Source: Cytidiella melzeri (Eukaryota > Basidiomycota > Agaricomycetes > Polyporales > Irpicaceae). Taken from it: a stretch of 64,000 nucleotides of DNA. Under the pieces are notes generated by a model. That model did no database searches. It was not told the DNA's origin and saw nothing but the letters and a program-made list of their open reading frames with translations. The stretch is from positions 1 through 64,000 of the forward strand of contig JABYQR010000151.1 in NCBI GenBank assembly GCA_022592445.1. Reading direction: 5' to 3'. The first letter of the stretch is position 1; each line of letters begins with the position of its first letter. Positions 37,311 through 58,935 of this stretch are shown in pieces. Both the position numbers and the translations under genes were made by a program.

Positions 37311-37984
37311 GTGACTTCTTTAGCAAGTGTGCATAGAACTGGCATTACTTTACTCGAACTACATAAAAAACTCGGTCATCTCAGTTACTTCATGATCAAG
37401 AAACTACTCCAAACTTTGTCAATTATTACTGATCATATAACTGACCATACTGAAGCTCCGTGCGAGGACTGTTTACTCAACAATATCAATTGCAATACTG
37501 TACCCAAACTTTGTTCTTCATCGTTAGCTGAAGCTTTTGGAGATCACTTCCATGTCGACATATTTGGGCCTCTACCTACAGCGTCGATTACTGGTAAATA
37601 CAAATACTGGTTTATTATCGTCGACAATGCTACTAGATGGTTAGTACTTGCACCACTAGTTACTAAAGATGACGCATATACTCAATGGGTCATTTTCTCT
37701 ACTGAATTATTGACACAATACGGTATTTGCGTCAAGATACTTCAAGCTGATAACAACGGTGTCTTTACCAGTAAAGCTATGACTACTTACTTAAAATCTC
37801 AAGGAACTATACTACGTCTTGCTGTACACGATACTCCTCAGCAAAACGGTGCTGCTGAATGTGTGCATCAAACTATTATGAACCTGATTCGAGTAAACCT
37901 GCATACTGCATCTTTACCAAATCGACTATGGTGGTACGTGTCACAGATTTTCAATGTTTCTACAAGACTTGCCTTACCAGGCAA
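37311..37984 (+). pseudogene. C3 integrase, truncated by G1
   Basis: GAG-pre-integrase (LHKKLGHLSYFMIKKLL, CEDC) and integrase core (HVDIFGPL, LQADNNGVF, QQNGAAECVHQ) run into ALPGN, where the G1 LTR begins. The TTT-rich stretch before 37311 separates it from protease by a frame break. Confidence 0.85.
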
Positions 37985-38733
37985 TGACGCGGAGACAAGG
38001 GTTCAACGCGGCAGACAGGGACACGAAGTGGATGACGACGAAGTGGTGGTGGTAGGCGTGAAGCACAATACTCTCACCAGCTATAAATCTTATACAGATG
38101 TCTAGCCCAGTAAAGACCAAGTTAGCATTGAATACTACTAGCTATGTAGTACAGGAAGGAGTGGCTTACCTAGCCCAGTAAAGACCAAGAGGTCGAGATG
38201 GGGGCTAGGAGCGTACATGCAGCTGCTTATATAGACTTCAGGGACCTGCGCACAGACCATGTTGAGGGCAGGCTTTGCAGGAAGCCGTGTGAACAAAGAA
38301 CTACCTAAAGGAGAACAATAGCTATTGTCTACACCTTGCCAAGAACTCTACCCGTGAGAGAATCTATCTAAAAGGAGACCAACTATTGTATTCCATTCCC
38401 ACACTTGTGAGAACATCCTTCCATAAAGAGAACAATAAGGAAAGAACAAAAGGAGTCCATGTGGACGTCATTTATGACATCAAACCCTAGCTATGGGCTG
38501 AACCATATGTCTGTAGCCATGTGGTCTTACTTAAGCTAAGTCACATGCCAGTGTGACGTAGTAGCAAGTAATGTGACCGTGTGGAGCGTCTAAGCCACGT
38601 GATACGGGCGCTTAATAGACGTGCAAAGGAGTTTGTGTAGAGAAGGTTGCAACTGAGCTGCAGCCCGGAGTTTTATAGATAAAAACAAGAGGTAAATTGT
38701 GAAAATTAAGGGCTAGTCAGGCCATCCATGACA
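37985..38733 (-). repeat. 3' LTR of G1
   Basis: Minus strand begins TGTCATGGATGG and ends CCGCGTCA. Contains the same TATA, start region and duplicated TTGGTCTTTACTGGGCTAG as the 5' LTR. Confidence 0.95.
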
Positions 38734-40472: not shown

Positions 40473-42683
40473 TCAGATCTTTGATTCGAGCGGAGAGGTA
40501 GTAGCAAGTGCACTGGTAGCGAGGATCCGGAAGTGTTCTGGTTGCAGTACCACCTGATCCTTGTTGTCTTCTTCATCCGTGACAGCATGTGAGTGAAGAC
40601 GAGAGAGAGGATCAGCGTGTATCATGGTACTGCCAGGCTTGTGAACCAACACGAAGTCGAAGTCGGCCAAAAGTAGTGACCAACGTGCTTGACGTTGAGT
40701 GAGGTGTTGCGCAGTTTTCCAGTACTGCAGGTTCGCGTGATCTGTCCAGATCTCAAACGGTTCCTTGAGCCCCTCAAGGTAGTGGCGCCAATCTTTGAGA
40801 GCCTCGGTGATGGCTAACATCTCCCGATCAAAGATTTCGTAGTTACGCTCAGCTTCAGTCATAGATGCAGATCGGTAGGCGATAGGGTGGTAGAATCCAT
40901 CTTCCTTTGATTTCTGGGAGATGATTCCCCCGGTCGCATAGCCCGAAGCATCGACTTCTAGACGTGTAGGGAGTTCAGGGTCCCAGACTGCCAAGATAGG
41001 CTTAGTGGTAAAGGCCTTCTTTAGCAACGTGAAGGCAGTCTCTTGTGCTGGACCCCAGACGAACGGTACGTCCTTCTTAGTAAGGTCGTGTAGAGGCCGT
41101 GCGTGCTTTGAGAAGTCTTGAATGAAGCGACGGTAGAAGTTGGCAAACCCTATGAACCCTCTAACTTCTTTGAGGTTCTTGGGTGTGGGCCATGTAGAAA
41201 CTGCTTGGACTTTGACAGGGTCCATAGCTACTTCACCAGCGCGAATGATCAATCCGAGGTACTCGATCTCAGATTTCTCAAACTCGCACTTTTCCGGACG
41301 AAGATACAGATTGTGTTGTTGAAGTCGCTCGAGGACTTCATGTACAACCTTGCGGTGCTCCGTCAGGTTGTTGCTCCAGATCAAGATATCATCTAGATAG
41401 ACAGCCACCTTGCCCTCGGCCACGAGGTCGGCAAAGATGTTGTCCATCAGAGCTTGGAAGGTAGCGGGTGAGTTCGTGAGACCGAAGAACATGACTTTAG
41501 GTTCGAAGAGTCCTTGGTTGGTAACAAAAGCCGCTTTGTATTCATCTCCTTCTTTGATGCGGACATTGAGATATCCCCAACGAACATCGAACTTGGTGAA
41601 GATCTTTGCACCCTTGAGCTTGTTGATAATGTCGGTAGCAAGCGGTAGTGGGTAATGATTCTTTACCGTGATGTCGTTGAGTTTGCGGTAGTCCTGAATA
41701 AGTCGGAGTTTGTTGTCCTTCTTTTTGATGAAAAAGACTGGAGAAGCCATCGGAGATTTAGAAGGCGTGATGTAACCTTTTGATAGGTTCTCCTGAATGA
41801 ACTTGTCAAGCTCGGCTTGTTTGTTCAGGGGCATAGGATAAACTTTCGATTTGATGGTCTCAGGAGCATCTGGTTTGAGATCAATCGAATGGTCACAGGG
41901 CTGATGCTGGGGTAGCCGATTAGACTCTTCCTCAGAGAAGACTTTAGCGTGTCTGTGGTACTCTGATGAAATGATGTCTTCGAAGGAGCGCTGAGCTTTA
42001 GCTTTGTTTGCTTCGGCAGCAAGCTTAGTAGAGTAGGTGAAGCCGGCCATACACCAGACTTCGTCAGTGGTGTCTTGGATAATACCGGCTTTTACCCACT
42101 GTCTACGTTCTTTGCGGTTACCGTCAACCTTCTGGAAAGGTTCATCAGGAGATTCTTCCGAGCCGCTCGGAATCGTCATTTCTCCTTTTTCCCAGTTGAC
42201 GGTAGGGTTTACGCGTTTGAGCCATGGTAGCCCAAGTATGATGTCTTCTGGACCCAAGTCCGTGACAAGAAACTCTGCTTTTTCTGTGTGGTCTCCAACA
42301 GTGAGTGTAAGGCGAACGAAGTGCGTTAATCCGCCAGCTTTATTCTTAGTTCCGTCGATATTGTGCAATGAGATAACCCTTTCGAGCGGATGCTGAATAA
42401 TCTTATGCTTTTTGACAAACTGATGACTGATAAATAAAGCTGTAGCTCCTGAATCGATCATGGCAGGAATGCGAATGCTTCTATTCAGACCTTTGACTAG
42501 TACATGTATTCGGAAATGGGACGATAACCGGTCTAGAGACGATATAGTACATGCAGAGACAGTAGACAATGTGCACGGAGTTGCTATGGTACACGAGGCA
42601 GAAGACGAGGAAGACGACGAAGGAGACAAGGACAGGGTGTCAGGGGGACTCGCAGCTGCGGCTGTGTCACGAGTCCGTTTCAA
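40473..42683 (-). CDS. G1 protease, reverse transcriptase, RNase H
   Basis: 736 codons. Protease IDSGATALFI; RT with LDKFIQENLSKGYI, the first Asp in IFTKFDVRWGY and an intact VYLDDILIW box; RNase H with LEVDASGYATGG and the DHANLQYW block. It starts in the -1 frame relative to gag across a T6 run at the gag stop codon (about 42680-42686), consistent with a translational frameshift. It ends at the TGA noted under integrase. The catalytic residues are intact. Confidence 0.92.
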   Translation of the reverse strand: MKRTRDTAAAASPPDTLSLSPSSSSSSSASCTIATPCTLSTVSACTISSLDRLSSHFRIHVLVKGLNRSIRIPAMIDSGATALFISHQFVKKHKIIQHPLERVISLHNIDGTKNKAGGLTHFVRLTLTVGDHTEKAEFLVTDLGPEDIILGLPWLKRVNPTVNWEKGEMTIPSGSEESPDEPFQKVDGNRKERRQWVKAGIIQDTTDEVWCMAGFTYSTKLAAEANKAKAQRSFEDIISSEYHRHAKVFSEEESNRLPQHQPCDHSIDLKPDAPETIKSKVYPMPLNKQAELDKFIQENLSKGYITPSKSPMASPVFFIKKKDNKLRLIQDYRKLNDITVKNHYPLPLATDIINKLKGAKIFTKFDVRWGYLNVRIKEGDEYKAAFVTNQGLFEPKVMFFGLTNSPATFQALMDNIFADLVAEGKVAVYLDDILIWSNNLTEHRKVVHEVLERLQQHNLYLRPEKCEFEKSEIEYLGLIIRAGEVAMDPVKVQAVSTWPTPKNLKEVRGFIGFANFYRRFIQDFSKHARPLHDLTKKDVPFVWGPAQETAFTLLKKAFTTKPILAVWDPELPTRLEVDASGYATGGIISQKSKEDGFYHPIAYRSASMTEAERNYEIFDREMLAITEALKDWRHYLEGLKEPFEIWTDHANLQYWKTAQHLTQRQARWSLLLADFDFVLVHKPGSTMIHADPLSRLHSHAVTDEEDNKDQVVLQPEHFRILATSALATTSPLESKI

Positions 42684-44173
42684 AAAACCGCATTAATTTT
42701 TGCTGCCATCTCATCCATTTGCTTCTTCTGGATGTCAAGCATGTCCTTGAGTGCAGCAATCTTAGCATCCTTGTCATTGGATGCGTCTTGCTTCGGCGTA
42801 GTAGTGGTCGACGAGGTCGACGAGGTAGCAGCGACTTGTTGTCCCTTAGGGACGCCTTGAAGTCGTTTCAGGCAAACGGCCCCCCAGTGACTGGTACCAC
42901 CGCAGTGGTTGCAGACCGGGTCATCAGGGTGCTTTGAATCCCTCTTCATGTGATTCTTCGAACCACAAACCGAGCAGCGCTTGCTCATCTCTTTCTTCCA
43001 TTTCTGGAAGATCTCCTGCTTTCCTAGTCCAGCAAAGAGGGCGTCAAACGAGGCGGAGAAACGAGAGGCGTCAATCTCCATAGCGTTGGGATTGCGGAAC
43101 GCTTGTTGGTGGGACTTGCCGTGTCCCGACGAGCTGTCCACCATAACCTTGCCCGTGCTGTTGCGGAGGTCGGCAAGCTGGGCATCGACCGCCTTGCACT
43201 GATCTTTGAGTGCGTCATACGTGGCTGCACGAGTTTGGAAGTACGAGACACGCTGCAAGTACTCGGTGCTCAAGCTTGACTTGAGGCGATCAAAGAGGTC
43301 CTGCTGGCTCCAGCCAGTGCGAGGGGCCCAGGTCTCAAACTCGGAGATATGAGCGGCGAAGGTCTTATTACCCTGCTTCATGTTGGCAATCTTTGTCTTT
43401 GCCTCCATGACAGCGTCAATGGGTTCGAATTTGGCTTTAAAAGCCTCGATAAATGTGTCCCAGTCATTTCCAAATGCTGGTTTGCTATTGGCTAACTCCT
43501 CAATGTGAGGGCGAGCCCAATCAGCGGCGTCCTCCTGCATGAAGGACAGGGCGCTGGTGATCAGTTTGTGAGGATCGAAGATCCTCGCGCCATTATTGTC
43601 CAACCGGACCTGGCCTTGTGCGTCTTGCTGGAAGAACACTTTTCCTTGATTTTGCGCCCAGACTATGAACGCGTGGCGGAAGAGCCTAGCTTCTGACAAT
43701 GTTTTCCCCTTGAAGGAGACCGGTTTTTCAACGATGCTTCTCTCCCGAGAAGTGTGCGTTGCAGCGACAACAGCTGGTGCCTGAACAGCTGCCAAGGCAG
43801 CCACCTGATTGGTGAGATCCACCATCCTTTGTGTCAGGACCCCGAACATGTTGAGGATGTCCTGAGCACTCAGGTTGGCAGCGGCAGCTGGGGCGGCGTC
43901 GGGAGCAGCGTTCTGCTGGTTTTGGTCCATGTCTGGTGCTGTGATTAGGAGTAGATTTTCTTTGTTTGGTGTCTGATAATGCTCAGAGTAGTACTCGTTG
44001 TTGACGGCTTCAGTGGAGTCTGCCTGAGTGTATCGATTTGGACAGGGTTGGTCGTCACACTCGTAGAATTGTCCTTTGTAGAAGTGGTCGTCGGTGACTA
44101 GATTGGAGTTGAAGAAATGTATACAATTATTGCAAGACGTGGTGGGCAAAAACTGTGGACTGTCTAGATCCAC
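42680..44173 (-). CDS. G1 gag (capsid-nucleocapsid)
   Basis: The frame is open from 44173, but the first ATG is at 43930 (MDQNQQNA), giving 416 residues. It has a Gln/Ala-rich N-terminus, a retrotransposon capsid-type helical region (DWARPHIEELANSKPAFGND, FKAKFEPIDAVMEAKTKIAN) and two Cys clusters: CSVCGSKNHMKRD and CNHCGGTSHWGAVC. The C-terminal 40 residues form a coiled coil. The ATG-less segment 44173-43931 is conserved in G2 (CNN..H.F, QPCPN), so it may be translated as part of an upstream fusion. Confidence 0.88.
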   Translation of the reverse strand: MDLDSPQFLPTTSCNNCIHFFNSNLVTDDHFYKGQFYECDDQPCPNRYTQADSTEAVNNEYYSEHYQTPNKENLLLITAPDMDQNQQNAAPDAAPAAAANLSAQDILNMFGVLTQRMVDLTNQVAALAAVQAPAVVAATHTSRERSIVEKPVSFKGKTLSEARLFRHAFIVWAQNQGKVFFQQDAQGQVRLDNNGARIFDPHKLITSALSFMQEDAADWARPHIEELANSKPAFGNDWDTFIEAFKAKFEPIDAVMEAKTKIANMKQGNKTFAAHISEFETWAPRTGWSQQDLFDRLKSSLSTEYLQRVSYFQTRAATYDALKDQCKAVDAQLADLRNSTGKVMVDSSSGHGKSHQQAFRNPNAMEIDASRFSASFDALFAGLGKQEIFQKWKKEMSKRCSVCGSKNHMKRDSKHPDDPVCNHCGGTSHWGAVCLKRLQGVPKGQQVAATSSTSSTTTTPKQDASNDKDAKIAALKDMLDIQKKQMDEMAAKINAVF

Positions 44174-45129
44174 TCGAAGTAGCTATCACTATTGACTACA
44201 TTAAGTTGCGCAAGAACTCTATCGTAGTTTTTACGAAGCTGCTTGAAAGAAACTTTCCCGATTGCTTTGCAACCCCAATCTAGGAGCTGCCACTCGCGGT
44301 CTGCTGTAACGGGTGCAAGGTCGTCAAGTTGGTTTAGAAATCGATTAACCTTGTTGACAAGGTGGAGCAGGGCGCGACGGTGGTCGGGGTTGGCGTGGTT
44401 CAGGAGCTCTTCAAGCTCAGTGAGAGCTTGTAGACGAGTGCGGACAGCGGCAAGCTTGGGCCTGAAGATGCTGACAAGATCCACCGGGGACAACTTCTTG
44501 AAGTCAATCAACACCGGTTTAGGTGCAGCGGGGGCGGGAGTTGGCGCAGGGAGTTTTGCTAGTCGCTCTGCGAGAGTGAGCTTGTGGATGTGTTGCTCGG
44601 CTAAGGTGCGGTCACGCTCCTCAGCAGCTCGTTCTCCGTATGCTCGTGCAGAGGCGCAAAGTTGTTGATTTTCCTCGTAAGAGGGGACAGTGAGGGTGAT
44701 GCCTTTGACAGACGGCTTCTTGGACACGTACTTTGTGACGGTGACCAGGTCTTTGTCAGACCAGCGATGAGGTTAACCACTCTTGCGCTTTTCAGCGAGA
44801 GTGTCAAGGAAAGATGGTGGAAGAGACCTCTTGAGCTGAGGCTCAGTTGCAGGGAGGTTCTTAGAGAAACGGGGGCGTGTGTCTTTAGGCACTAGATAAC
44901 GCGTAGGGGGTGAAAACGGATGACGTAAGCGTAGCTCAACGGTATGAGAAGACCGGAGACGTACTCGACAAACAGGAATAAACTTTTTTAAACGGTGGGA
45001 ATGGGGACCCAGGGTTTCACGACAATCTCGACCTAATGACACGGAGACAAGGGTTCGACGTGGCAGACAGGGACACGAAATGGATGACGACGAAGTGGTG
45101 GTGGTAGGCGTGAAGCACAATACTCTCAC
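44164..45129 (-). CDS. G1 ORF0: conserved methionine-free ORF upstream of gag
   Basis: One frame open from 45129 (inside the LTR) to TAG at 44164, interrupted by a single TAA near 44774-44776. No methionine codon occurs in the frame. The protein part aligns with G2 ORF0 (54381-55134): PSFLDTLAEKRKSG*PHRW-DKDL against ESFFEARQELRKQGCPHLY-EKDL, then YVSKKP/YVSRRP, VLIDFKKLSPVD/VTLNFHKFSIKD, a helical Leu-rich region, and FKQLRK..SYFE/FTQLRK..GYFE at the end. I know no described family. Expression without ATG would need a non-AUG start. It overlaps the gag frame by about 10 nt. Confidence 0.6.
45025..45034 (-). promoter_or_regulatory. G1 self-complementary primer-binding site
   Basis: Two bases inside the 5' LTR the minus strand reads AGGTCGAGAT. 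Its exact complement ATCTCGACCT is in the LTR (plus coordinates 45242-45251), about 34 nt downstream of the TATA box, where transcription should start. This is the arrangement of Tf1-type self-primed elements. Confidence 0.75.
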
Positions 45130-45785
45130 CAGCTATAAATCTTATACAGATGTCTAGCCCAGTAAAGACCAAGTTAGCATTGAATACTACTAGCTATGTA
45201 GTACAGGAAGGAGTGGCTTACCTAGCCCAGTAAAGACCAAGAGGTCGAGATGGGGGCTAGGAGCGTACATGCAGCTGCTTATATAGACTTCAGGGACCTG
45301 CACACAGACCATGTTGAGGGCAGGCTTTGCAGGAAGCCGTGTGAACAAAGAACTACCTAAAGGAGAACAATAGCTATTGTCTACACCTTGCCAAGAACTC
45401 TACCCGTGAGAGAATCTATCTAAAAGGAGACCAACTATTGTATTCCATTCCCACACCTGTGAGAACATCCTTCCATAAAGAGAACAATAAGGAAAGAACA
45501 AAAGGAGTCCATGTGGACGTCATTTATGACATCAAACCCTCGCTATGGGCTGAGCCATGTGGTTGTAGCCATGTGGTCTTACTTAAGCTAAGTCACATGC
45601 CAGTGTGACGTAGTAGCAAGTAATGTGACCGTGTGGAGCGTCTAAGCCACGTGATACGGGCGCTTAATAGACGTGCAAAGGAGTTTGTGTAGAGAAGGTT
45701 GCAACTGAGCTGCAGCCCGGAGTTTTATAGATAAAAACAAGAGGTAAATTGCGAAAATTAAGGGCTAGTCAGGCCATCCATGACA
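45037..45785 (-). repeat. 5' LTR of G1 with TATA, start site and leader intron-like repeat
   Basis: Minus strand TGTCATGG..GTGTCA. A TATA box (plus 45279-45286) is followed after about 34 nt by ATCTCGACCT, then CTTGGTCTTTACTGGGCTAG, then GTAAGC..GCTAAC.. and a second CTTGGTCTTTACTGGGCTAG. The 68-nt GTAAGC..TAG interval has donor, branch and acceptor signals. Confidence 0.95.
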
Positions 45786-46683: not shown

Positions 46684-47205
46684 TCAGAAATTCATTGCCA
46701 AGAATAGAGATGCTGTGATTGGTTGTGGAGCTACTGGGTGTTGTCTGTGGAAATCTTTGACAGCTTCATTGGCATGAGTGACGTTGGTTGCTGGTTCCCA
46801 GGAATTTTCTGATTCTGGGTATCCTTTCCACTTCACATGGTACTGAAACTCCTTCTTTTGCCCGAAGATTCTTGAACCAAGAATCTGTTCTACCTTGTAC
46901 TCCTCTTCTTCGTCAACCACAATCGGCTCGGGTTCAGGAAATTCCCGATTAGGGACCAAACTTGCCGTCTTGGCTGGTTGCAACCTATCCACATGGAACA
47001 CCGGGTGACGCTTGTCTTGAATGGTGAGTTTAACCCGGTAATTCAAATCCCCAATCTTTTCTAAAATCTCATAGGGACCATCTCGTTTTGGTGCTAGCTT
47101 TGCCACCGGCTGTTCCTTTGGATGTTTTTCGCGTTCCACGTAAACTTTGTCTCCAACCTTAAACTGTGGAGCTTTTGCAACTCCGTGATCATAGAACCGT
47201 TTCAT
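46684..47205 (-). pseudogene. G2 integrase C-terminus and chromodomain, separated by insertion
   Basis: Contains the GPY-type segment (LAPKRDGPYEILEKIGDLNY), HPVFHVDRLQP and a chromodomain (YKVEQILGSRIFGQKKEFQY, VKWKGYPESENSWEP). It is the continuation of the integrase at 49064-50357, cut off by the 47230-49063 insertion. Confidence 0.9.
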
Positions 47206-47229
47206 GCGTTCTGCTGTAAGTTGTAACGC

Positions 47230-49063
47230 TGAGACACTGAGTCACGCTTCAAACTAAGAACAACCTTAAAGACAACACAACCAACCACGAAGTGGCAATA
47301 GAAGTGTAAAGGTGTGGAAGCGCGGAAGTGTTAAAGTGTGCAAGGTGGTCTTAGAGTCCTAGTTTTACCTGTGCTAAAAAGAGCGACAAGGTTTGTGATA
47401 AAGTTTGTGTGAAAAGAGCTAGACAGGCAGCTACCACTCGTATCGCGGTTAAAAAGGGCAAGGCGGCGCGGTGAAAGCGAAAGAGTTTTAGCACGGCTCA
47501 AACAGAACGCGCAGGAGATGTCGCGACTTGTAGGAAAACGGTGCGCGGAGAGATGCAGATGATAAACGCAGGCGCAATATGAATCTCGAACACAAAACGC
47601 GGTTGCTGGTGAAGATGAAGAAGTCGCTGTAGAACGCGGGCGCAGTGAAAGTGAACGCAGTAAGCTCGACACAGTGAAGGTGAAATGCAACGCAGTAATG
47701 CAGTAAAATAACGCAGTTAAGAAGCAAACACAGTATAACACAGCCGAAAGGAACCGTAAGAGACAGACAAACTAATGGAGCGCGAGTTGCAGAACAAGGC
47801 TATGTGAGATCACAGTCAATTTGACTCGACAGACTGCGCGCGGGGGCGGTAGTGTAGAACAACACTTCCCGAGCGGCGATGCGTATTGCAGGCGAATGCG
47901 TGGCCAAGAACAACGTTGGTAGAGCTGGTAAGATTGAACTGTACTAGTTCGCACTGGTGGTCCTCGCCTTCAAAGTCTGGGGACAGCCAACAATCTGGGT
48001 GCAGCGCGCGCGGGCGATCGCAGTCGAGCGGGACGAAAGGTCCTGAACGTAGGGGAATTGTGTGATTGCTCTGAGTGTCGCAGTAAGAGCAGTTATCAAG
48101 CAAGTCCGCGACGGAGGCGACGGACGATGCTGGCGAGGGTGATTTAGGAGTTGATCTCTTAGGGGAGACCGTAGGCGCTGCTGAGGGTGCTGGCGGCGGC
48201 GTGGGCGCGGGGATGATGGGGTAACGGCGTAGAACCTCGCGCGGGCGCGGGCAGTAAGGGCAGCAACCGTCGGGCAGGTGGGGAACGGTGGGACAGTAAC
48301 GGCAGACTCGAGGCGGGTTGTCGTTGGTAGACACAGTGGACATAAACGTGGAAGAAGTCGCAGTGAGACAACGCAGAAGAAGCTACAGCTATGGGCACGA
48401 AGAGACTCCCTCGATGCGAGCGCAAAGCGTAAAGTGAACTCTGGAAATGGGGGTGGGGATTGATTATTTTCTACGCAGTACAGGCAACACCTTTTTATAT
48501 ACCCTAAACCTTTCCTTCTATGTCCTAAACCCATACGCGAGAGCAAGGAAACATGGTGGCAGAATACTTCCGTCTGTGGAGGCAAAATGTCCAGTGAGTC
48601 GGCGCCTGGCAGGACACAGCGTTGGTCGACGCGGAGTAGCGGCGCGTGCCCTTGCGCTGAAGAGGCGCCAACCGTTGCGAGCAGGTGATGAGGCGCCGTC
48701 CAGGAGTTGCACAGCGTGGCGTGATAGGAGTCTTCCTGAAATGGGGTTTGCGCGTCAAGTTTCTTCTACCGTTGGTCCGACCCGCGTCCGAAACACTTGG
48801 TGGCTGGCCGGCCCATGCTCCAATGCAACAGGGGTGTGTCTGTGTGTCAGAGTTCGGTGCGATTCCTCGGCCTTGGACGTCTCCGGCGCGTTGCTCCTTG
48901 CCAAGTCCTCGGATCCTCGGCAGACTCCTTGTGACCTCGGTGAACTCCTCGTGACCTCGTGACACTGGGAAAGTGGAGGGACTTGCCGCTCAGGATGACG
49001 CGGGCCGCGCAAATGGTGAGCTGCTGCCGGGTCTCCGCGCCTAGCCAATTTCCGGGCGTATCA
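47230..49063. mobile_element. 1.8-kb LTR-like insertion, TG..CA ends, 4-bp duplication
   Basis: Plus strand begins TGAGACACTGAG and ends GGGCGTATCA. It is flanked by ACGC (47226-47229 and 49064-49067), and removing it rejoins the G2 integrase frame (KAAL-QLTAERMKRFY). The ends TGAGAC and (complement) TGATAC are LTR-like short inverted ends. It has no pol-type gene but a TATA motif (minus strand, about 48490-48500) and a Cys-rich ORF. Either a very long solo LTR or a non-autonomous element of unknown class. Confidence 0.75.
47816..48343 (-). CDS. Cys-rich 175-residue ORF in the LTR-like insertion
   Basis: Starts MSTVSTNDNPPRVCRYC about 150 bp downstream of TATATAAAAAGG. Cys pairs CRYC..CCPYC near the start, NCSYC in the middle and DCDRP..HPDCW..HQCEL later could bind zinc. 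A Pro/Ser-rich linker (about 45-75) separates the first two. It matches nothing I know. Coding status rests on ATG context, length and Cys spacing only. Confidence 0.4.
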   Translation of the reverse strand: MSTVSTNDNPPRVCRYCPTVPHLPDGCCPYCPRPREVLRRYPIIPAPTPPPAPSAAPTVSPKRSTPKSPSPASSVASVADLLDNCSYCDTQSNHTIPLRSGPFVPLDCDRPRALHPDCWLSPDFEGEDHQCELVQFNLTSSTNVVLGHAFACNTHRRSGSVVLHYRPRAQSVESN

Positions 49064-52000
49064 ACGCAGCTTTAGCATCTTCTTGGGCTTCTCGAAGTGC
49101 TCGAAGATGTTTGTCTGCTGCAGGAACATTTGACACTGGGTTCAAAGGCACCTGGAACTCTGGTAGATACCCATAGATCAGCTTGAAGGGAGCCTTCCCG
49201 GTAGATGAGTGTACTTGGCTATTAAGCACAAACTCCGCAATTGGTAACCAATCCACCCAGTCATCCTGTCTGAAGGAGCAGAACACTCGGACATACTGTT
49301 CTATCTCTTGGTTCATACGTTCGGTTTTACCATCTGTCTGAGGATGGTATGCAGTGGACATGGACAACTTTACTCCGAGTGCATCGTAGATCGCACAAAG
49401 AAACTTAGATGCAAATACTGATCCGCGGTCTGAGATCATCTGACGAGGTACACCGTGGAGTCGAAACATGTTTGCAATATAATCTTGTACGTGCTCAGGA
49501 GTCTTCATGCTTTCCCGTGATGGGTAGCAATGCACCTGTGCTGTTGTTCGATCAACCACAACCGTGATGGAATCATATCTTTTACATGGCGGTAGTTTGA
49601 CAATGAAGTCCGTGGTGACACTTTCCCATGGGGCATTGGGTGGTTCTAGCGGATTGAGCGGACTGCGTGGTGGAGCAGGGTACGTCTTTGTTCTTTGACA
49701 GGTGTCACATGTGTCTACGTAATCATTGACAAACCGTGTCATGCTGGGCCACTTGTAGTTCCGGGATAGTAATTCCAGTGTTTTATACCTGCCCGGATGT
49801 CCGGCAGCAAATAAATCATGGTGTCTCCGAACTAGTTCCTTTCGGACCTCGTCATCTTTAGGGACGTAAACTTTTCCCCGGAACAACAACAGTCCATTCT
49901 CCACGTTCCATTCTTCGAGTCCACGACTAAGAAGACGAGGTCCGAGTTTCTTGACTTTGGCAAGTGCTTCTGCCACCTCGGTTTCTCGAAGAGAACATTC
50001 ACGGATACGTTTCAACAGGTCTCTGTCTGGCTGTACACTAGCTTGCCCACGTTGAGAAGCAGCAGCTCGGAAAACCTCAGGCGCTAAGACTACTTGTGAC
50101 AGATTGTCTTCTTTGTCTTTGACCTTGTGTTGACCCAATCGTGACATGGAATCCGACTTTCCCATAGATTTCCCGGGCTTTGGAATGATCTCAAAGTTGA
50201 AACGTGAGAGAAATAGCGACCAACATGCTTGACGACATGTCAAGTTACAGGCTGTCTTCCAGTACTCAAGATTCTTGTGATCGGAGAAAATAGGGAATTT
50301 CTCTGGTAGCCCTTTCAGGTAGTGACGCCAGTCCTCAAGGGCTCGTACAATTGCCATGAGTTCTCAATTGTAAATCTCATAGTTTCGTTCGGTCTCAGTC
50401 ATGCCCTCTGACCGATAGGCTACTGGATGCCACGTGCCGTTTTCAGCTTGTTGTTCCAATACTCCTCCCATTGCATATCCGGATGTGTCTGTTTCCAAAC
50501 AAGTGGGTCTATCAAAACTCCACATTGCCAACACCGGTGCTTCCACAAATTATCGGTGGAGTTCATCAAACGCCGACTGCTCTTCAGGGCCCCACTTCCA
50601 AGGTACCTTACCCGTGAGATGATCCAAGGGCTTACATATCTTCCCAAAGTCCCTGATGAATCTTTGGTTTGCAAACCCGCGGAATCGGCGGATATTGGAG
50701 ACGTTCTGCGGTACAGGCCATTCAGCCACTGCCTTTAATTTGACAGGATCCATGCGTAACTGATTGTGGCCAATGATGACGCCAAGGTACTCTGTCTCTG
50801 ACCTCTCAAACTCACATTTCTCCGGCTTCAAAAACAGGTCATGTTGCCTGAGCCGTTTTAGAACTTCATGTACCACTTGTCGATGTTCAGATATATCCTT
50901 GGAGTAGATAAAGATGTCGTCCAAGTAAACTGTGACTTTGCCCTCGGCAATGAGGTCGGCAAAAATATCATTCATCATATTCTGGAATGTAGCCGGAGAG
51001 TTTGTGAGTCCAAAGAACATGACAGTTGGTTCGAAGAGTCCACGGTTGGTAACAAACGCTGCCTTGTGTTCATCACCTTCTTTGATACGGACATTAAACT
51101 TATCAAGCTCTTCTTGCTCAGGGTGTGAAAGCGGGTAAACTTATGTGTGGAATCCTTTTGCTTCCGGAATCAATTCAATCGCATGGTCGTACGACTTGTG
51201 TTCTGGAAGTCGTTGAGATTCCGTCTCAGAGAAGATGTGAGCATGTTGACGATATTGTTCAGGTACCATCTCCTCAAACGTTTTGACTGGTTTAACCCGG
51301 TTCTCGACTTCAGCTAGTTTACTAGAGTATGTGTATCCTGCTAGAGTGAACAAGCGTTCACCTTCTTGTACCATAGGTGTCGGACGTGTGCGTACAATGC
51401 GTCGGGGAGTTCCTTTTCCACCGAGCTGAGTAGTGGCCTGTGCCTGTAACTTCGGCAATTTGGCCCCGTCCAAACTTCCTGAACCTTCCGTGGTCTCCTC
51501 GAGGTCTTCTTCGGCCTCCTCCGTATCCACCGGCAAGTACAGAAGTTGGTCCACAACTTTCTGTAATCCCGGGGTCCTCTTCTTCCGTTTAGGCTCAGCT
51601 GTTCTCTTAGCTGCAACCTCCTTCGCTTCCTCAACCCGTTCTCTAGGTTTACACGCATCAGGACATCCATCCATCCTGATGATGCCTTCGTACCAATCAA
51701 TGATGGGGTTGTGGTACCTCAACCAATCAATTCCTATGATTACATCTTCCGGCCCAATGTCGGTCACCGTGAAGATAGTCCTTTCCTCGTGGTTTCCTAT
51801 CCTCATTTTGAGAATGGCGACTTCATCAATAGCCCCGTCTCAATTTGGGGTTCCATCTATGTTGTACACCGGAATTGGTCTTTTCAACTTCCGGGTCCTG
51901 ATACGATGCTCTCAAACAAACTGTTTATGAATGAATAGTGTCGAGGCTCCACTATCAATCATTGCTGCGACTTCTTTAGATCTCCCCACTCCTGAAACTG

Positions 52001-52130
52001 TGATGGGTACGTGAACATGTTCCGATTCAGAACCAGTCTCTAATACATCAGACGCGAGTACAGAGAATCTATTGTTACATGGTATACGCGGGGCGCGTGC
52101 TTGCGCAGCTCGAATCACGGCCCGAATCAA
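49064..52130 (-). pseudogene. G2 protease, RT, RNase H, integrase, multiply broken
   Basis: Protease AMIDSGASTLFI (52130 frame), then TGA stops at about 51909-51911 and 51840-51850. RT: AELDKF-equivalent ELDKF is joined directly to NVRIKEGDEHKAAF near 51090, so about 84 residues present in G1, including the first catalytic Asp, are missing; VYLDDIFIY remains. RNase H (LETDTSGYAMGG) is broken by TAA near 50547 and TGA at 50361-50363. Integrase (50357-49064) has HHCC (HHDLFAAGHPG..CDTCQR) and a D,D,E core. At least two of the stops replace expected Arg codons. Confidence 0.9.
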
Positions 52131-52955
52131 AAACCCTCCTCAAGTCTCTTCTTGAGGTCGGCATTCTCCGCCCTCAACTTCTCCAGTTCCCCTAGCACGG
52201 CATTGAGTGTCACTTCCAACACTGCCGACAAGCTCGACGCTTCTTCCCTCTCAGGCTTCTTTTCTTCGGCCCGAGAAGAAGATACCTCTCCAGTGGTAGC
52301 AGCCACACGAGTCCCTCGAGGTGGTGGGTGTGGAACTGCCGGTTTGGTGCATGTACGTGCAATGTGACTAGGGTTGGTGGTAAGTTCTTGGCAGTTGTAA
52401 CACCGCCGACCTTGTTGCATCTTGGAGGCGTCGACCTCCATGGGAACCGGAGCGTTGGAAGGACGGGGGGCCGGAGTAAACCTGGGCTGAGACTGGGTAG
52501 GCCTCAACGTAGTTGACGGGGGAACAGATGGAGTTTTCTTTTCCATTGTCTCCCTGATGCGGGCGTATGCAGCTACCATTTTTAGTGACCTATCAATCCA
52601 GCCTTGGTAATTGGCTGGAGGTGCTTCGGCCGTTGCCAGTCGCCCATAGATGTATTCAGGGAGACCTTTGATGAACTGGATCTCCTTGTCCATGTCGCTT
52701 AACCCATTGATGCGTCCCACGTAGGATTGGAAATCGGTGACGTAAGTACCTACGTCACACGCATTCTTCTCCTTTTTCTCTGCTCCACAGAGCTTTTCCA
52801 ACTCACGGATAGCAGTATCTTCGGGCGTTGCATTGCCGAAGTATTTCTTGAGCTCTGTTTTAAACTTGGCCCATGTATCAAGGTTGGCCGGCAAATCACC
52901 GTTGTGGTCAGCCATATGGTCCGTGACCGGTATTGCCCATGTCGCGGAGCGACTG
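52127..52955 (-). pseudogene. gag of second element in G2 mosaic, N-terminus missing
   Basis: Open from the LTR boundary (SATWAIPVTDHMADHNGDLP) to 52127. Capsid-type DTWAKFKTELKKYFGN, RELEKLCGAEKKEK, FIKGLPEYIYGRL; Cys cluster CYNCQELTTNPSHIARTC; terminal coiled coil LGELEKLRAENADLKKRLEE. No start codon region or leader, because an LTR abuts it. Confidence 0.82.
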
Positions 52956-52956
52956 C

Positions 52957-53630
52957 TGTTATGCTGCTAAACCCTAAATAAGGGCGAGGAAGAAGGGGAG
53001 TGGAAGTGGAAGTGGATCTCCAACGACAATAACGAGGTCAAAGTCAATGATGAGCAGGCAAGCAGGCTCAGAGGCCGGATACTGGCAGTGCAAATGACAA
53101 AGTTAATATCAAGCTTAAACTAGGTTACATTGAGTAACTCACCTGGCAGTGCAAATGACGAAGAGGTCAAGATGCAGAACCAGGGAGGGTAAGGGGTACT
53201 ATATATACTGTGTCTGGGTGGTCTGTGCACTAGTTCCCACACTAGGGACTGGAGTAACTGTGGGGCTGGAGTAACAATAGAACAATAAGAGACCAGGGTA
53301 ACTGTTAAGGACCTGAGTAACTGTCAAGGACCAGGGTACATAGAACAATAGAACTAGAACAATAGACAATAGAACAATAGAATCAGGAACAATAGAACAA
53401 TAGGAACTGGGGGAATCCCTAACAATAGACAAAAGACAATAGACGGAAGACAATAGAACAATAGGACTGGGGGAATCCCTGGGGAATCCCTATCAATGGA
53501 AGTGGAACAATAGAACAGTAACCTAGGTTGATCTGGAACCGCTCCAGATTGAGTCTAGGGTTTGGGTCTGGACTATTGATAAATAAGGCAGGATTTCACG
53601 TGACCCGGGTTAGGGTTAGGTCCGGTAACA
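52957..53630 (-). repeat. LTR of a third gypsy family (LTR B)
   Basis: Ends TGTTACCGG..GCATAACA on the minus strand (perfect TGTTA/TAACA). TATATATAGTACC lies about 34 nt before ATCTTGACCTC. The 17-bp GTCATTTGCACTGCCAG occurs twice, flanking a 61-nt segment GTGAGT..ATTAAC..CCAG. No target duplication (ACTGC against CTTCT), and different gags on the two sides, so it probably marks a recombination junction. Confidence 0.8.
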
Positions 53631-53633
53631 CTT

Positions 53634-54377
53634 CTAGCCGGAAAGTAAGCGCTCTAGATAGGCGCCTAAGGCTGTAAACTTGTGACATTGTTGGAAAAAT
53701 CCGGTCTCTGTTGGACTATCCATGTCAGCCCATTGGGCAGCCTTCTCTGACAACCGGTAGATTGCTGTCAGGACCTTGGTTTTTTCATCGGCAATACTAG
53801 CGGTCACCCAGTAAGCCTCGCATTGTGACAGGAATCGCTCTAAGTCACGGCCATGTTTGCCCTTGTATCTATCGGGCTTGGAGTCGTTATTGTTGACCGT
53901 GACTTGCGGTCTCGGCATTGCTTGCGCAACTGCAGCTACAATGGCTGCAATCAAGGCAGGATCAACCGCGGGTGTTGTCATTGTGATGGGAGTGGGGGAA
54001 ACAGTTTGAATTGGTAGAGTTTCTGGTATAACCTCGGGGGTGACAGGAGCAGTGATGGGGTCGGGAATAATGGGGGTAACAAATGTGACGTCTGGTGAAA
54101 CCGGTGGGATTTCCGGTACAGCTAAACTGGTATCAACTTCGATTTCTTCCGGAACTCCGACCGTCAGCGGAATTTGACTGTTATCACAGGGTACGTAACC
54201 GGAGTATTGTTGTCCTTGTCTGAAATGACGAGAGACTACAAACTTTTCACTTTGATTTGGACATGGCTGCTGTTCGCAGACTTCGATGTACGCGTGATCC
54301 TCCTCGTTATCGTGACAGTCCAGACGATTGTTGGGATCAAAGACGTGGAAAAGATTATTGCACTCAATGATTGCTAT
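53634..54377 (-). pseudogene. G2 gag N-terminal part
   Basis: In frame with ORF0 after two adjacent TAG codons (54378-54383). The first 130 codons have no ATG but hold ECNNLFHVF..EQQPCPN, matching G1 (CNNCIHFF..DDQPCPN). The first ATG is 53981. The capsid region (GRDLERFLSQCEAYWVTASI, AIYRLSEKAAQWADM, HKFTALGAYLERLL) stops at the LTR B boundary and overlaps in content with the gag on the other side. Confidence 0.75.
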
Positions 54378-54380
54378 CTA

Positions 54381-55134
54381 CTACAAAGGGAGTTTCTCAA
54401 AATATCCTCCGTCTGCTACAAATGCAACTCGACTCGTGACCTCTGTCAACCTCTTGCGCAGTTGTGTGAAGTTGATTTGTCCTACTGACTGCAGGCCCCA
54501 ATTCAGTGCTTTGAGCTGGGCAGGCGTGCAAGTGGAGAGTACTTCCTCCGTATGCTCTATGAGGTACAGAAGTTTGTCGTTGAGTAGCAGGACTGATTTG
54601 ACCTGTGAGTCGTTGCGGTCACAGGTAAGTTCGATCAGAATCTTGAGGCGTCTGGTGGTGGCCTCAATCTTCGGCTTGAGAATGCCGACTTGGTCCTTGA
54701 TGGAGAACTTATGGAAGTTGAGTGTCACCGGTTTCTGCACGTCCGGTCGAGGTGGTGCGGGTGCCCGAGAGATGCAATCCTTGAGAGACGGTTTCTCAAT
54801 ACGGTTGGCGAGAGTTTGCATACGTTTGGTGCGTGTACGTTCCTTGATATACTTGTTGTCACGAGCAAACTTTTTGTGGTCGAAGTGTGGGAGTCTAGTA
54901 CCGAGAGGGTGGTAGTGAGGACGGCGTGAGACGTACGAAACAATGGCTTCAAGGTCCTTTTCTGTGTAGAGATGGGGACAACCTTGTTTGCGCAGTTCTT
55001 GTCGAGCCTCGAAAAAAGACTCAGGTACGTTACGACGGATGTGTACGTCTTTCGGCACTACAACCACGACGTAAGAAGGAAGATCAAGGGTCCGGGCCAA
55101 TACAACGTACTGGTAAACCGGGGGGACTAAACTT
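54381..55134 (-). CDS. G2 ORF0: conserved, nearly methionine-free ORF
   Basis: Open from just inside the primer site to TAG at 54381; coding-like from KVFKSLVPPVYQYVVLART. A single Met occurs (KRMQTLANRIEK). Shared with G1 ORF0: SFFEARQELRKQGCPHLY, KDL.AIVSYVSRRP, VTLNFHKFSIKDQVGILKPK, ALNWGLQSVGQINFTQLRKR, GYFE at the end. Likely all-helical. It is followed in the same frame by two TAG codons and then the gag leader, so readthrough would fuse ORF0 to gag. Function unknown. Confidence 0.6.
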
Positions 55135-55191
55135 TTAAAAACTTTGGGGCAAGGGAATATGCGGTTGTGCGACGTCCAGGCGAGTGTACGG

Positions 55192-55202
55192 AGATTCTAC
55201 CT
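55192..55202 (-). promoter_or_regulatory. G2 self-complementary primer-binding site
   Basis: Minus strand AGGTAGAATCT begins two bases inside the LTR. Its exact complement AGATTCTACCT lies in both G2 LTRs (55419-55429, 46284-46294), about 35 nt downstream of the TATA box. Confidence 0.75.
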
Positions 55203-55462
55203 AATGTCAAAAACACAACTAAACTCTATGAAGAGCGAGGAAGTGACAACGGGGGAGGAACGACGAGCAAACTCGCGTGGACAATGACGACAGGGGTGAT
55301 GATGATGAGGAAAGAGAAAGAAACGACGACGAGGGAGTAGCTGACAATGAGCTAAAGACCAGGATATATTAGTACAGTGATAGACCTAGTACAAGGTGGA
55401 CGTCACCTAAAGACCAGGAGGTAGAATCTGAGGTCTTTAGGGAGCTACAAGGTGGGTTTATA

Positions 55463-58440
55463 AGATAGACCCAGGTCATTTTCGACTACTATCGTCACAC
55501 TGTGACGTGTCATGTGATTATCACGTGCGCCGTTCCGATAAGCCTCTGCGCGTCGTACTTGCGCTTGAACATACTCAGTAGTCATATATTCATTGTAGTG
55601 TACGTTGAAAAAATATCAGACAAGATTTTAAACCATGTTTTCGGCTGTGAGACGTTCGAAAACATCATTATGAATCACTCTATGGCCGGAATATTTCTTA
55701 CTAGCCCAAGCAGCCTGCTTTCCATTAAGGCCCTTGTGGTATGCATCCGAAAAGCGCAGGGCTCGGGTATAGAAACTGGATCGAGATGGTCAGAACAGCC
55801 GTGGTATGCATGAATAGAATAGTTACTTACCAGCGAATACATTTCAGGGGCACCGAGTCCAGAGCCGCAACGAGATTTGCTTGAAGATCTGCCTCCTTCT
55901 TTGAGGCCGGATTCTTGCGGTAAATCCGCTTCGAGTAGCCCCAGCACTGCTCAATGGGATTGAGCTCACAATGGAATTTTGGGAGGAACAGGCAGCCAAC
56001 ACCTTCCTTCTCGCACTGAAGCTCAAGAAGGGACTTTGCATCTGTAAAGTCCGGCTGGTGAAAGAGAAGGCGACGGCAGCAACATGGGTTGGCCGAGTAG
56101 AATTCCAAAGGTGCGAGACCATTCACAGGCGGTGGGCATTGAAATTTTGGGCATTGCGCACGAAGCTGATGTGCGTTCTCGTAGCCCCGCTCGGTGAGAA
56201 TTGTTGCCATACCTTTGAATGCGCCACGACGTGCAGGGTCAGGGTCATCCAATGGGAAATAAAGCGGTTGAACAACGCTGTTTGATAGAAGTCCATCTGT
56301 CATTGGACGGCGCTCCTTGAGAAGCTTTCCATCAGGGCCGTATACAGGCTTCCCATCCGCCAATACGGTACTGTCAACCCCAAAATTCTTCTCCGGGTTT
56401 GAGGAATTCTTCGGCATGCTGCGCGCAGAGAGAGCATCATCGGCTCGTTTCAGGTGAGTGGGAGCATTGTCAAAAACAAAGCAATGGTCGTCGTTGGGCC
56501 ACTCTTGACGAACCAGTTTGATGGCAGCTTCAACTTGTTCCAAAATATCCGCATTTGTGTAGTATCCGTCTCTGCTCTTTCCGGGACGGAACAATCGACA
56601 AGCTGACTCCTTTCCATCCGCAGATTGCAGCCAGCCGTAGTCCGCAGAGACAAAGTCCGAAACCATTAGCGATGCACCTTCGCCTTTTGCTCGAGGTACA
56701 GCCTTTTCGCCTTCATGTACCCATCGTACCTTACGGCGATCGTTTGCGTAGAAGGTTGATTCATCATGCCACCAGATGACAGTTCGCCGGGATGGATCAA
56801 TGCCGTGATTTCCCTCAGGATCGGTACGTGCAATTTCATCCCCATTAGCATCGAACTGTCGTAACAATGGCCGCAGCTTCTCCAACGCTGGCAGGAACAC
56901 CTCTTGGCGATATTTAACGACGTCTTCGCGCTCATGACCATCAACGTACTGCCCGCTCGGAATCTGAGCCCATCTATACCGTAAACTGTGCATCCAACCC
57001 TGGGCAGTCGAAAGTCCGATGGTCTTCTTTAGCCCGAAGCGTGTTTGATTGTCCGGCTCCGCGAGAAACTCGACAATATCAAGAGCGCGAACGTGCTGTC
57101 CGACAGATTGCAGATGTTCGCTAAGTGCCACCTCTAGGTCCTCATTTTCCAGCGCTGACATATTCCACATGCCATGGCGGTTGACAGGTAGATCATGACG
57201 ATCACTAAGGAATCTTCGGGTCCATTCCCGGAGACGACGTGCGAGAGCTATTCCACCCTCATTAGCAACAGCCGTGCGCATTGAAGCATCAATCCAGCCC
57301 GGTGAGTCTCCTGTGATGTACAGCCAAAGGAACATCCTCATCATCTCCATACGTCTCTGCAGGACGTCACCACCTTCGAAAGGCTTTTTCCCCTTTCCCG
57401 AAGGTTTGCGAGGGTGAAGCAATGCCTTCAGATCTTCCCAGGCACGGCGAGCTTCATCTACTTCGGGGGGTGGAGTATAGGCCGAAGTTGTACATTGCGC
57501 GGGTATGTTGCTCCTTTCTGTGCTAGCCATTGACTCTAGCTCAGCCTCTCTTTCCTTCGCAGCGCCTTCATTGTCTGATTCCCGCTCAATAGCATCAATT
57601 TCGACAATGACAGGTTCTGAGACTCCCGGCTCCGAGCTCTCCGAGATGGCATCGCTCGCGAAGCTGATCAAGCTGCCTCGGCTCGACGACCAGTTGGACG
57701 AAGTGTTGGATAGAGTATATGGACTGGGAGAAGTTGTTCTAGAAGGCAGGTTGACGACAGATGATCCAGGAGAGGCCGTGAAACGGTATGACCAGGTGGG
57801 TGTAGCGATTTCCTCAAAAGTGGACTGAAGCCGAATTCTGAGCTGACTTGTATTCAAAAAGCGACCAAACGACGAGGTGCTAGACACACGAGACAGTGTT
57901 GGATTATCTTCAGAAGGTGCTGAAGCGGTAGAGTGGATTTCTTCAGAATTTGTAGACATTGGCTGATTTCCGACTACAGTGCTAATATTGAGCACATCAG
58001 AGCTCACGGACTCGGAGACCTCGCCTCGAGTACCCTGCTGCGCGTCCACTGAGGGCCGTGCTCCTCTCTAGAAAAGACAAGTAAGTTCACCCTCCGAGCC
58101 TGCTTTCTATGCTGCAGTGATAAACTCACTTTGTCGCCTATAGGCTGTTCATTCGAGGGCCAGCGGCTCAAAAGCCCTGAGACCTTCCGTTTTGCCTGCC
58201 CACCCCACTCAGTGATAGACTGAGAGATTCCTCGCTTCCGTTTCGCTGGCTCACTCATGCTGAATTGCAGCTGTGAGGTTTGCGGCCCTTGGCTTGGTCA
58301 GAATAATTTTTGTTTCATCGCACTTATGTCTACATTGAGCTTATAACCAAGTTATCATTTTATTCAAGACTTATTTGACGTGACAACGAGTGACAGCTTT
58401 TGAGACACGTGATGTAGTCGAAAATGACCTGGGTCTATCT
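55463..58440. mobile_element. Tc1/mariner-like DNA transposon, intact-looking
   Basis: 2978 bp with perfect 27-bp terminal inverted repeats that begin AGATAGACCCAGGTCATTTT. It is flanked by a TA duplication (55461-55462, 58441-58442); the uninterrupted G2 LTR at 46310-46330 confirms that only TA was duplicated. One three-exon transposase gene without any break. Confidence 0.95.
55628..58258 (-). CDS. Tc1/mariner-like DDE transposase
   Basis: Three exons (58258-58130, 58067-55831, 55775-55628) join in frame to 837 residues. Residues 1-270 are Ser-rich and basic at the start (MSEPAKRKRGISQSI). A helical region with FGLKKTIGLSTAQGWMHSLR may bind DNA. The catalytic triad is D in VIWWHDESTFYAN, D in CFVFDNAPTHL and E in FHCELNPIEQCWGYSKR. 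The spacing between the second Asp and the Glu is long, as in fungal DDE_3-type transposases. The C-terminus (KGLNGKQAAWASKKYSGHRV) depends on the second intron. No stop or frameshift: possibly active. Confidence 0.9.
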
Positions 58441-58935
58441 TATACATCTCAGACAAGGACCCCTGGTACCGGGTCTGTACTCCTAACACTGCCGTGGGAA
58501 CATATGGTGTGCTATGGTGCAATGTTCTACAATGTTCCACAATGTTCCAGCACCTTCTATGATCATGTGACCAGTCTGTCACATGTACTTGATCACATCA
58601 GGAGCCATGTGCCATCGATAAGATAAGATAAGGAAAAATAAAAGTAAAAGAAAAGTAAAAAGTGTGCCTTGTAAGGATAGCAAGCCCGGACCGTCTGGGA
58701 CCGAGACTAATTCCGCGCCATCATTGTCCGAAATCAGCCTACGTACAAAATTACTATATTTGGCAGGAGCTCCAGCGACTGCCTAAGGGAGCTCCACGAC
58801 TGTCTCTGCCTTTGTCTCCCTGTCTCCCTGACGTCTGGAACCGAGACTATCTGTCAATCAGACGGGTCTGGCATAGGGTAAGCAACGGATCATGTTATTG
58901 AGTACAACGGCGGGCACGTCCTGGCACAGGGTAAG

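What the first reader, a model, noticed from the sequence alone, without database searches (positions are those of the whole stretch)
44164..45129. Conserved methionine-free ORF upstream of gag in two divergent gypsy elements
G1 (44164-45129) and G2 (54381-55134) each have a long frame between primer site and gag. The two products align over their length (KRKSG-PHRW/LRKQGCPHLY, KDL..YVS, FKKLS/FHKFS, QLRK..YFE), yet G1 has no Met and G2 one. The leader before the gag ATG (43931-45036 and 53982-55204 on the plus strand) contains, by my scan, one and two ATGs in about 1.1 and 1.2 kb, against 17-19 expected by chance. A following ATG-less stretch with CNN..H.F..QPCPN is also shared. Either the leader is scanned to the gag ATG, or ORF0 is translated from a non-AUG start; protein-level conservation argues for translation.
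Basis: partly seen in the sequence, partly recalled or inferred. Interest (0 to 1): 0.87.

Follow-up and report, generated by a model that had tools for sequence, protein, structure and literature searches.

The report
GUG-started gene upstream of gag
Several families of fungal jumping genes appear to make an extra, nearly methionine-free protein from a GUG start codon inside a leader that selection has kept free of AUG, so that the other ribosomes can scan on to the next gene.

Summary
In 39 G1 and 20 G2 copies the leader between LTR and gag carries 14 and 37 ATGs against 219 and 214 in dinucleotide shuffles; most are private, and CAT (the same word on the other strand) is common. ORF0 is coding: pN/pS is 0.17 in its frame in both families, near gag (0.12-0.15), against 0.5-0.9 in LTR. 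Selection switches on at a GTG. In a third family (3 copies read) an in-frame TGA three codons upstream leaves GTG as the only near-cognate start. Genome-wide TAGTGCCNAARGA occurs 498 times, the motif with other Val codons 8 times. Of 22 homologues 15 begin at this residue; 21 of them hold 4 Met in 4,206 internal residues. Best reading: scanning ribosomes sometimes start at GUG, making ORF0 (225-252 aa, pI about 10, no known domain); the rest scan on, 1.3-1.4 kb from the 5' end, to gag's AUG. This is the strategy of rice tungro bacilliform virus, here in self-priming Ty3/gypsy elements. Translation is inferred, not shown; the window's own G1 copy is broken.

The parts
45035..45334 (-). G1 5' LTR (at least these 300 nt); partner LTR 37983-38282
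   Evidence: 98% identical direct repeat
45242..45251 (-). G1 self-primer, inferred 5' end of the RNA
   Evidence: perfect complement of the 10 nt at the PBS; inferred by analogy with Tf1
45154..45221 (-). putative leader intron (GTAAG..CTAAC..TAG)
   Evidence: strict pattern in 30 of 39 G1 copies; absent with a clean join in 9; splicing not proved
45025..45034 (-). G1 primer binding site next to the LTR
44890..44892 (-). GTG, proposed ORF0 start codon of G1
44164..44892 (-). G1 ORF0 (window copy broken by in-frame TAA at 44773-44775)
   Evidence: pN/pS 0.166 over 39 copies
43931..44163 (-). spacer and CNN stretch in gag's frame, with Cys/His motif; candidate ACG at 44138-44140
   Evidence: pN/pS 0.40, no stop in gag frame over 39 copies
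42680..43930 (-). G1 gag from its ATG
   Evidence: Retrotrans_gag 3.8e-09; ATG in 39 of 39 copies
55419..55429 (-). G2 self-primer, inferred 5' end of the RNA
   Evidence: complement of the G2 PBS
55192..55202 (-). G2 primer binding site
55056..55058 (-). GTG, proposed ORF0 start codon of G2
54381..55058 (-). G2 ORF0
   Evidence: pN/pS 0.169 over 20 copies
53982..54377 (-). G2 CNN stretch in gag's frame
   Evidence: pN/pS 0.417

Best explanation
G1, G2 and G3 are families of self-priming Ty3/gypsy elements. Their RNA starts in the LTR at the self-primer and probably loses a short leader intron. The mature leader has no AUG until gag, 1.3-1.4 kb from the 5' end. Ribosomes scan from the cap. A minority initiate at a GUG (usually in UAGUGCCNAARGA) and make ORF0, a basic protein of 225-252 residues whose only Met is the initiator. 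The rest pass it and start gag at the first AUG. Selection removes AUG in all frames of the leader and ORF0 because an AUG there would trap ribosomes before gag. Shown by sequence: AUG purge, coding selection, GTG invariance, self-primer complementarity. Inferred: initiation at GUG, leaky scanning, splicing, cap position. My guess for ORF0's role, with no direct evidence, is a basic accessory factor acting on the element's RNA or Gag.
For: ATG 14 vs 219.1 expected (G1) and 37 vs 214.4 (G2), CAT 425 and 376 in the same leaders. ORF0 pN/pS 0.166 and 0.169. In the ORF0 frame pN/pS is 1.73 (G1) and 0.53 (G2) in the 75 nt before GTG, 0.27 and 0.30 in the 30 codons after it. TGA TTC TTA GTG in 3 of 3 G3 copies read. 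GTG 498, other Val codons 8, ATG/CTG/TTG 18; backward-pattern controls 7, 31, 12. First codon GTG in 70 of 72 copies (2 without intact motif), while internal Val is GTG in 99 of 931. 15 of 22 homologues begin at [M/V]P[K/R/A], P0015 written with V. Self-primer pairing differs between families on both sides.
Against: No RNA, ribosome or protein data. The GUG context is not strong: -3 is T or C in G1 and G3, +4 is C. In G2 the pre-GTG ratio (0.53) is already below 1, though no lower than in the +1 frame (0.54), so the G2 boundary is less sharp than in G1. TAGTGCC could partly be an RNA motif. Copies share ancestry, so 498 is not 498 independent events. Homologue DNA was not read, so their M could be ATG in some. 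No consistent hairpin downstream of GUG.
Confidence: 0.77

Rival explanations
1. Stop-restart: a short upstream frame begun at a non-AUG codon ends at the UAG overlapping the GUG (UAGUG), and terminating ribosomes reinitiate at GUG, much as at UAAUG in non-LTR elements.
For: UAGUG at 498 sites (pattern chosen to contain it). In G1 the UAG frame is nearly stop-free for some 75 codons upstream.
Against: Four of 72 copies (L044, L049, L055, L083) read CAGTG and lack the UAG, and L061 reads GGTG. No AUG exists to start such a frame; in G2 a conserved stop lies about 70 nt upstream in that frame (position 78).
Confidence: 0.08
2. ORF0 is made from an AUG on an alternatively spliced RNA.
For: LTR ATGs at 45312 and 45270 are in 38 and 39 of 39 copies; the leader has intron-like signals.
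Against: Those ATGs lie upstream of the inferred 5' end, and the similar homologue N-termini at the GTG would be unexplained.
Confidence: 0.05
3. ORF0 is fused to Gag by readthrough or frameshifting.
For: In the 16 G2 copies with the motif the downstream frame is in phase, also in G3 copies L079 and L080 and in 7 of 15 G1 copies.
Against: The offset is 0, 1 and 2 in 7, 3 and 5 of 15 G1 copies; G2 mostly has two tandem stops; the stop is TAG, TAA or TGA.
Confidence: 0.02
4. Gag is translated by internal entry and the leader is not scanned.
For: Long 5' leaders in retroelements can hold internal entry sites (recalled).
Against: Strand-specific loss of AUG over the whole leader is what scanning predicts, and internal entry would not need it.
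Confidence: 0.06
5. The leader is conserved as RNA and ORF0 is not translated.
For: Leaders often hold packaging signals (recalled).
Against: Shared variable sites fall at codon positions 38/20/98 in the ORF0 frame; protein similarity reaches homologues at 30-41% identity; antisense frames have 179-680 stops over 39 G1 copies.
Confidence: 0.02

Closest known systems
Rice tungro bacilliform virus and badnaviruses: leaky scanning through AUG-free ORFs (PMC5902531, passages read)
   Same: First long ORF starts at a non-AUG codon (AUU there, GUG here), no internal AUG for about 900 nt there and over 1.2 kb here, main polyprotein starts at a downstream AUG.
   Different: Plant pararetrovirus with ribosome shunting and no integrase (the last recalled); here an integrating LTR element of a fungus, and no shunt structure was looked for.
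Plant gypsy elements with ORF0 (Retrosat2, RIRE3, RIRE8; PMC3485330, passages read)
   Same: Extra ORF between 5' LTR and gag-pol.
   Different: The passages read say nothing on a non-AUG start or an AUG-free leader; sequences were not compared.
Drosophila MDG1-group elements with sORF1 and sORF2 (PMC11952523, passages read)
   Same: Accessory ORFs upstream of gag with low dN/dS, on an unspliced transcript.
   Different: sORF2 is a short membrane-fusion-like protein; ORF0 is 225-252 aa with pI about 10.
Tf1 / Tj1 self-priming elements (PMC4600332, passages read)
   Same: RNA 5' end complementary to the PBS.
   Different: The legend read for Tj1 lists Gag, PR, RT and IN only; no upstream accessory gene.

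Membership tests
Ty3/gypsy chromovirus-type LTR element (G1) | gag, protease, RT, RNase H, then integrase, with chromodomain | tested here: met
   Pfam matches in that order on the minus strand
Ty3/gypsy chromovirus-type LTR element (G1) | Paired LTRs | tested here: met
   300 nt at 98%; for G2 no partner LTR was found in 47000-60000
Self-priming (Tf1-like) elements | PBS complementary to the start of R in the LTR | tested here: met
   Perfect 10-11 nt in 29 of 38 G1, 16 of 18 G2 and 10 of 13 other copies scored
Self-priming (Tf1-like) elements | RNA 5' end used as primer | not testable with these tools
   needs experiment
RTBV-type leaky scanning (works like) | AUG-free upstream ORF with non-AUG start | tested here: met
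RTBV-type leaky scanning (works like) | Measured initiation at the near-cognate codon and flow to the downstream AUG | not testable with these tools
   needs reporters or ribosome profiling
Caulimoviridae (membership) | No integrase or LTRs (recalled) | tested here: not met
   integrase and LTRs present
Plant ORF0 family (Retrosat2/RIRE) | Sequence homology of ORF0 | not tested
   plant sequences not at hand
Known Pfam families | ORF0 match above curated cut-off | tested here: not met
   16 ORF0 members, no match better than 0.019; window copies
Known protein folds | Clear structural match of ORF0 | tested here: inconclusive

The most novel reading that the evidence does not exclude
The AUG-free leader encodes two non-AUG products: ORF0 from GUG, and an N-terminally extended Gag with a Cys/His motif from a second near-cognate codon (ACG in CACCACG for G1, AUU in AUCAUUG for G2, GUG in AGUGUGG for G3). 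One RNA would set the ratio of ORF0, extended Gag and Gag by graded near-cognate starts, in a fungal retrotransposon lineage with an essentially methionine-free accessory protein family.
Probability: 0.33. Interest if true: 0.85.

Novelty: new variant of a known kind. Interest (0 to 1): 0.72.

Why it matters
If true, the AUG-purged leader strategy of plant pararetroviruses also operates in fungal LTR retrotransposons. It would be a clean natural case of an obligate GUG-started eukaryotic gene, with about 500 start motifs in one genome, so it can be tested directly with reporters and ribosome profiling. It also points to a protein family that annotation overlooks because eukaryotic gene finders ask for ATG: the one named fungal hit, P0006, looks like a truncated gene model. 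Strand-specific ATG depletion is a simple screen for more such genes in retroelement leaders.

Tried and rejected
Readthrough or frameshift into gag: offsets and stop codons vary. A start upstream of GTG in G1: in-frame TGA at leader position 67 in 38 of 39 copies; the longer frames of L018 and L033 go with one extra C in a C run. Hairpin after GUG: five folds gave z -1.06, -2.29, -1.36, 0.64, 0.66, so nothing consistent although L079 folds well. Antisense gene: best antisense frame pN/pS 0.19 (G1) and 0.23 (G2) but 209 and 77 stops. Mutational cause of ATG loss: CAT is not depleted likewise. Viral contigs: no relative. Weak matches to PC4, MAPKAP1 and NLR coiled-coil or MLKL bundles are at background level. 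Papers: ten searches listed no title or abstract start describing a GUG-started or methionine-free ORF upstream of gag in fungal gypsy elements; only the listed rows were seen, and the library holds open-licence papers only. Left out of counts: L027 and L058 (no intact start motif), P0006 (Met count), gapped codons and stop codons in pN/pS. The 20 further G2 copies were never read, and the genome search scores only its best candidates, so copy numbers are lower bounds.

Full report
WHAT IS THERE. Both elements lie on the minus strand of the window, part of a 49.7-Mb, 731-contig assembly held as G000. The closest named protein to ORF0 is a hypothetical protein of Cytidiella melzeri, 90% identical over 47% of the query, an Agaricomycete of the order Polyporales; the host itself is not named. 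G1 has a 300-nt LTR pair at 98%, gag, and protease, RT, RNase H, integrase and chromodomain.

AUG PURGE. From LTR end to gag ATG, 39 G1 leaders hold 14 ATGs (26 have none) against 219.1 in dinucleotide shuffles; 20 G2 leaders hold 37 (7 have none) against 214.4. From the inferred 5' end to the LTR end the counts are 10 vs 85.2 and 4 vs 36.1. Just after the gag ATG they are 77 vs 106.8 and 71 vs 92.9. CAT occurs 425 and 376 times in the same leaders, so the effect is strand-specific. By site, no ATG after the LTR is shared by more than 2 of 39 G1 or 4 of 20 G2 copies, whereas the gag ATG is in 39 of 39 and 19 of 20. LTR ATGs at 45312 (38 of 39) and 45270 (39 of 39) lie just upstream of the inferred RNA start at 45251; in G2 the ATG at 55508 (19 of 20) lies upstream of 55429. 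Of the 13 other copies, 8 have an ATG-free span over 800 nt around the GTG; 5 (L080, L084, L085, L086, L088) have shorter spans, mostly in G2-like copies.

ORF0 IS CODING. Nei-Gojobori counts over all pairs give pN/pS 0.166 for G1 ORF0 (267 codons) against 0.121 for gag and 0.75-0.91 for LTR, and 0.169 for G2 ORF0 against 0.146 for gag and 0.51-0.91 for LTR. The other two sense frames give 1.2-2.2. Shared variable sites by codon position are 38/20/98. The sense frame has 5 stops over 39 G1 copies; antisense frames have 179-680. G1 and G2 proteins are 31-33% identical. Against this, the window's own G1 copy carries an in-frame TAA (44773-44775), and 7 of 39 G1 copies in all lack a full-length frame.

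THE START IS GUG. (i) The ORF0-frame ratio is 1.73 (G1) and 0.53 (G2) in the 75 nt before GTG and 0.27 and 0.30 in the 30 codons after; in G2 the +1 frame before GTG gives 0.54, so 0.53 is no coding signal but the step is less sharp. (ii) All 3 G3 copies read TGA TTC TTA GTG CCG AAA, so GTG is the only near-cognate codon before the conserved VPK. By my hand count 61 of the 143 matches listed have an open frame of exactly 254 residues, which is this boundary. (iii) TAGTGCCNAARGA occurs 498 times, with the other three Val codons 8 times, with ATG, CTG or TTG 18 times (3 ATG); backward-pattern controls are 7, 31 and 12. In fetched copies Pro2 uses four codons and Lys3 two, the first codon is GTG in 70 of 72 (2 lack an intact motif), and internal Val is GTG in 99 of 931. 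(iv) Two searches gave 22 distinct homologues; 15 begin with [M/V]P[K/R/A] at this point. Gene callers write M for GTG (P0009 begins with M where P0004 has V; P0016-P0018 likewise against P0012), and P0015 is written with V. Leaving out P0006, internal Met is 4 in 4,206 residues of 21 proteins, several of them near-duplicates. Limits: the DNA of these proteins could not be read, and copies share ancestry.

RNA ANATOMY. The PBS pairs perfectly over 10-11 nt with a site upstream in the LTR in 29 of 38 G1, 16 of 18 G2 and 10 of 13 other copies scored: AGGTCGAGAT in G1, AGGTAGAATCT in G2, AGGTCAAGAT in G3. Differences between families are matched on both sides, the sign of Tf1-like self-priming (PMC4600332, passages read). 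Just after the self-primer lies a putative intron (30 of 39 G1 copies by a strict pattern); 9 G1 copies and L080 lack it with a clean join. Its 3' end repeats the end of exon 1, so deletion between repeats would leave the same join, and splicing is not proved. The two upstream ATGs of G3 copy L079 lie inside it.

HOW IT PROBABLY WORKS. Scanning ribosomes meet GUG in a middling context; some start ORF0, most go on to gag's AUG, which in G1 has G at -3 in 33 of 39 copies and G at +4 in 39. This matches the published RTBV mechanism: AUU start for ORF I, about 10% initiation, 900 nt of leaky scanning eased by absent AUGs (PMC5902531, passages read). Initiation and leakage are inferred here. ORF0 is basic (pI 9.9-10.1, 26-29 kDa in four copies), predicted all-helical at moderate confidence, with no Pfam family and no confident structural match.

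THE SECOND PUZZLE. The gag frame is open and selected upstream of gag's ATG (pN/pS 0.40 and 0.42), with a shared Cys/His motif ending in QPCPN. It is not indispensable: 23 of 38 scorable G1 copies lack the motif. Readthrough and frameshifting do not fit. Each family has a near-cognate codon with A at -3 before it (ACCACG in 20 matches among G1-type copies, AUCAUU in 17 among G2; AGUGUGG in G3, by eye), so a non-AUG extended Gag is the most novel open reading.

NOVELTY. ORFs upstream of gag are known in plants (PMC3485330, passages) and flies (PMC11952523, passages), and AUG-free leaders with a non-AUG start in plant pararetroviruses. My ten paper searches listed nothing that joins the two in a fungal LTR element (open-licence library, listed rows only). 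Hence a new variant of a known kind.

Noticed in passing
45154-45221 (minus strand) and L080, L019, L025, L026, L029, L036, L037, L038, L040, L054: Intron-like stretch in the LTR just after the self-primer; its 3' end repeats the last 12-21 nt of the preceding exon in G1, G2 and G3, and ten copies lack it with a clean join, as if copied from spliced RNA or deleted between the repeats.
   Followed up: partly
45025-45034 with 45242-45251; 55192-55202 with 55419-55429: Self-priming complementarity with matched changes between three families.
   Followed up: yes
L017-L055, between ORF0 stop and gag ATG: In 23 of 38 scorable G1 copies the CNN motif is missing, often with only 54-78 nt left between ORF0 stop and gag ATG: a domain lost in part of the family.
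   Followed up: partly
52967-53633: The window's G2 gag looks interrupted: the copy aligns with fewer columns than its length and this stretch holds short near-repeats.
   Followed up: no
55827-58067 (minus strand): A 746-codon open frame that looks like a DDE-type transposase by eye; not searched.
   Followed up: no
ORF0 of the fetched copies: Internal Val codons avoid GTG (99 of 931, against GTC 460), which might reflect selection against extra GUG starts.
   Followed up: no
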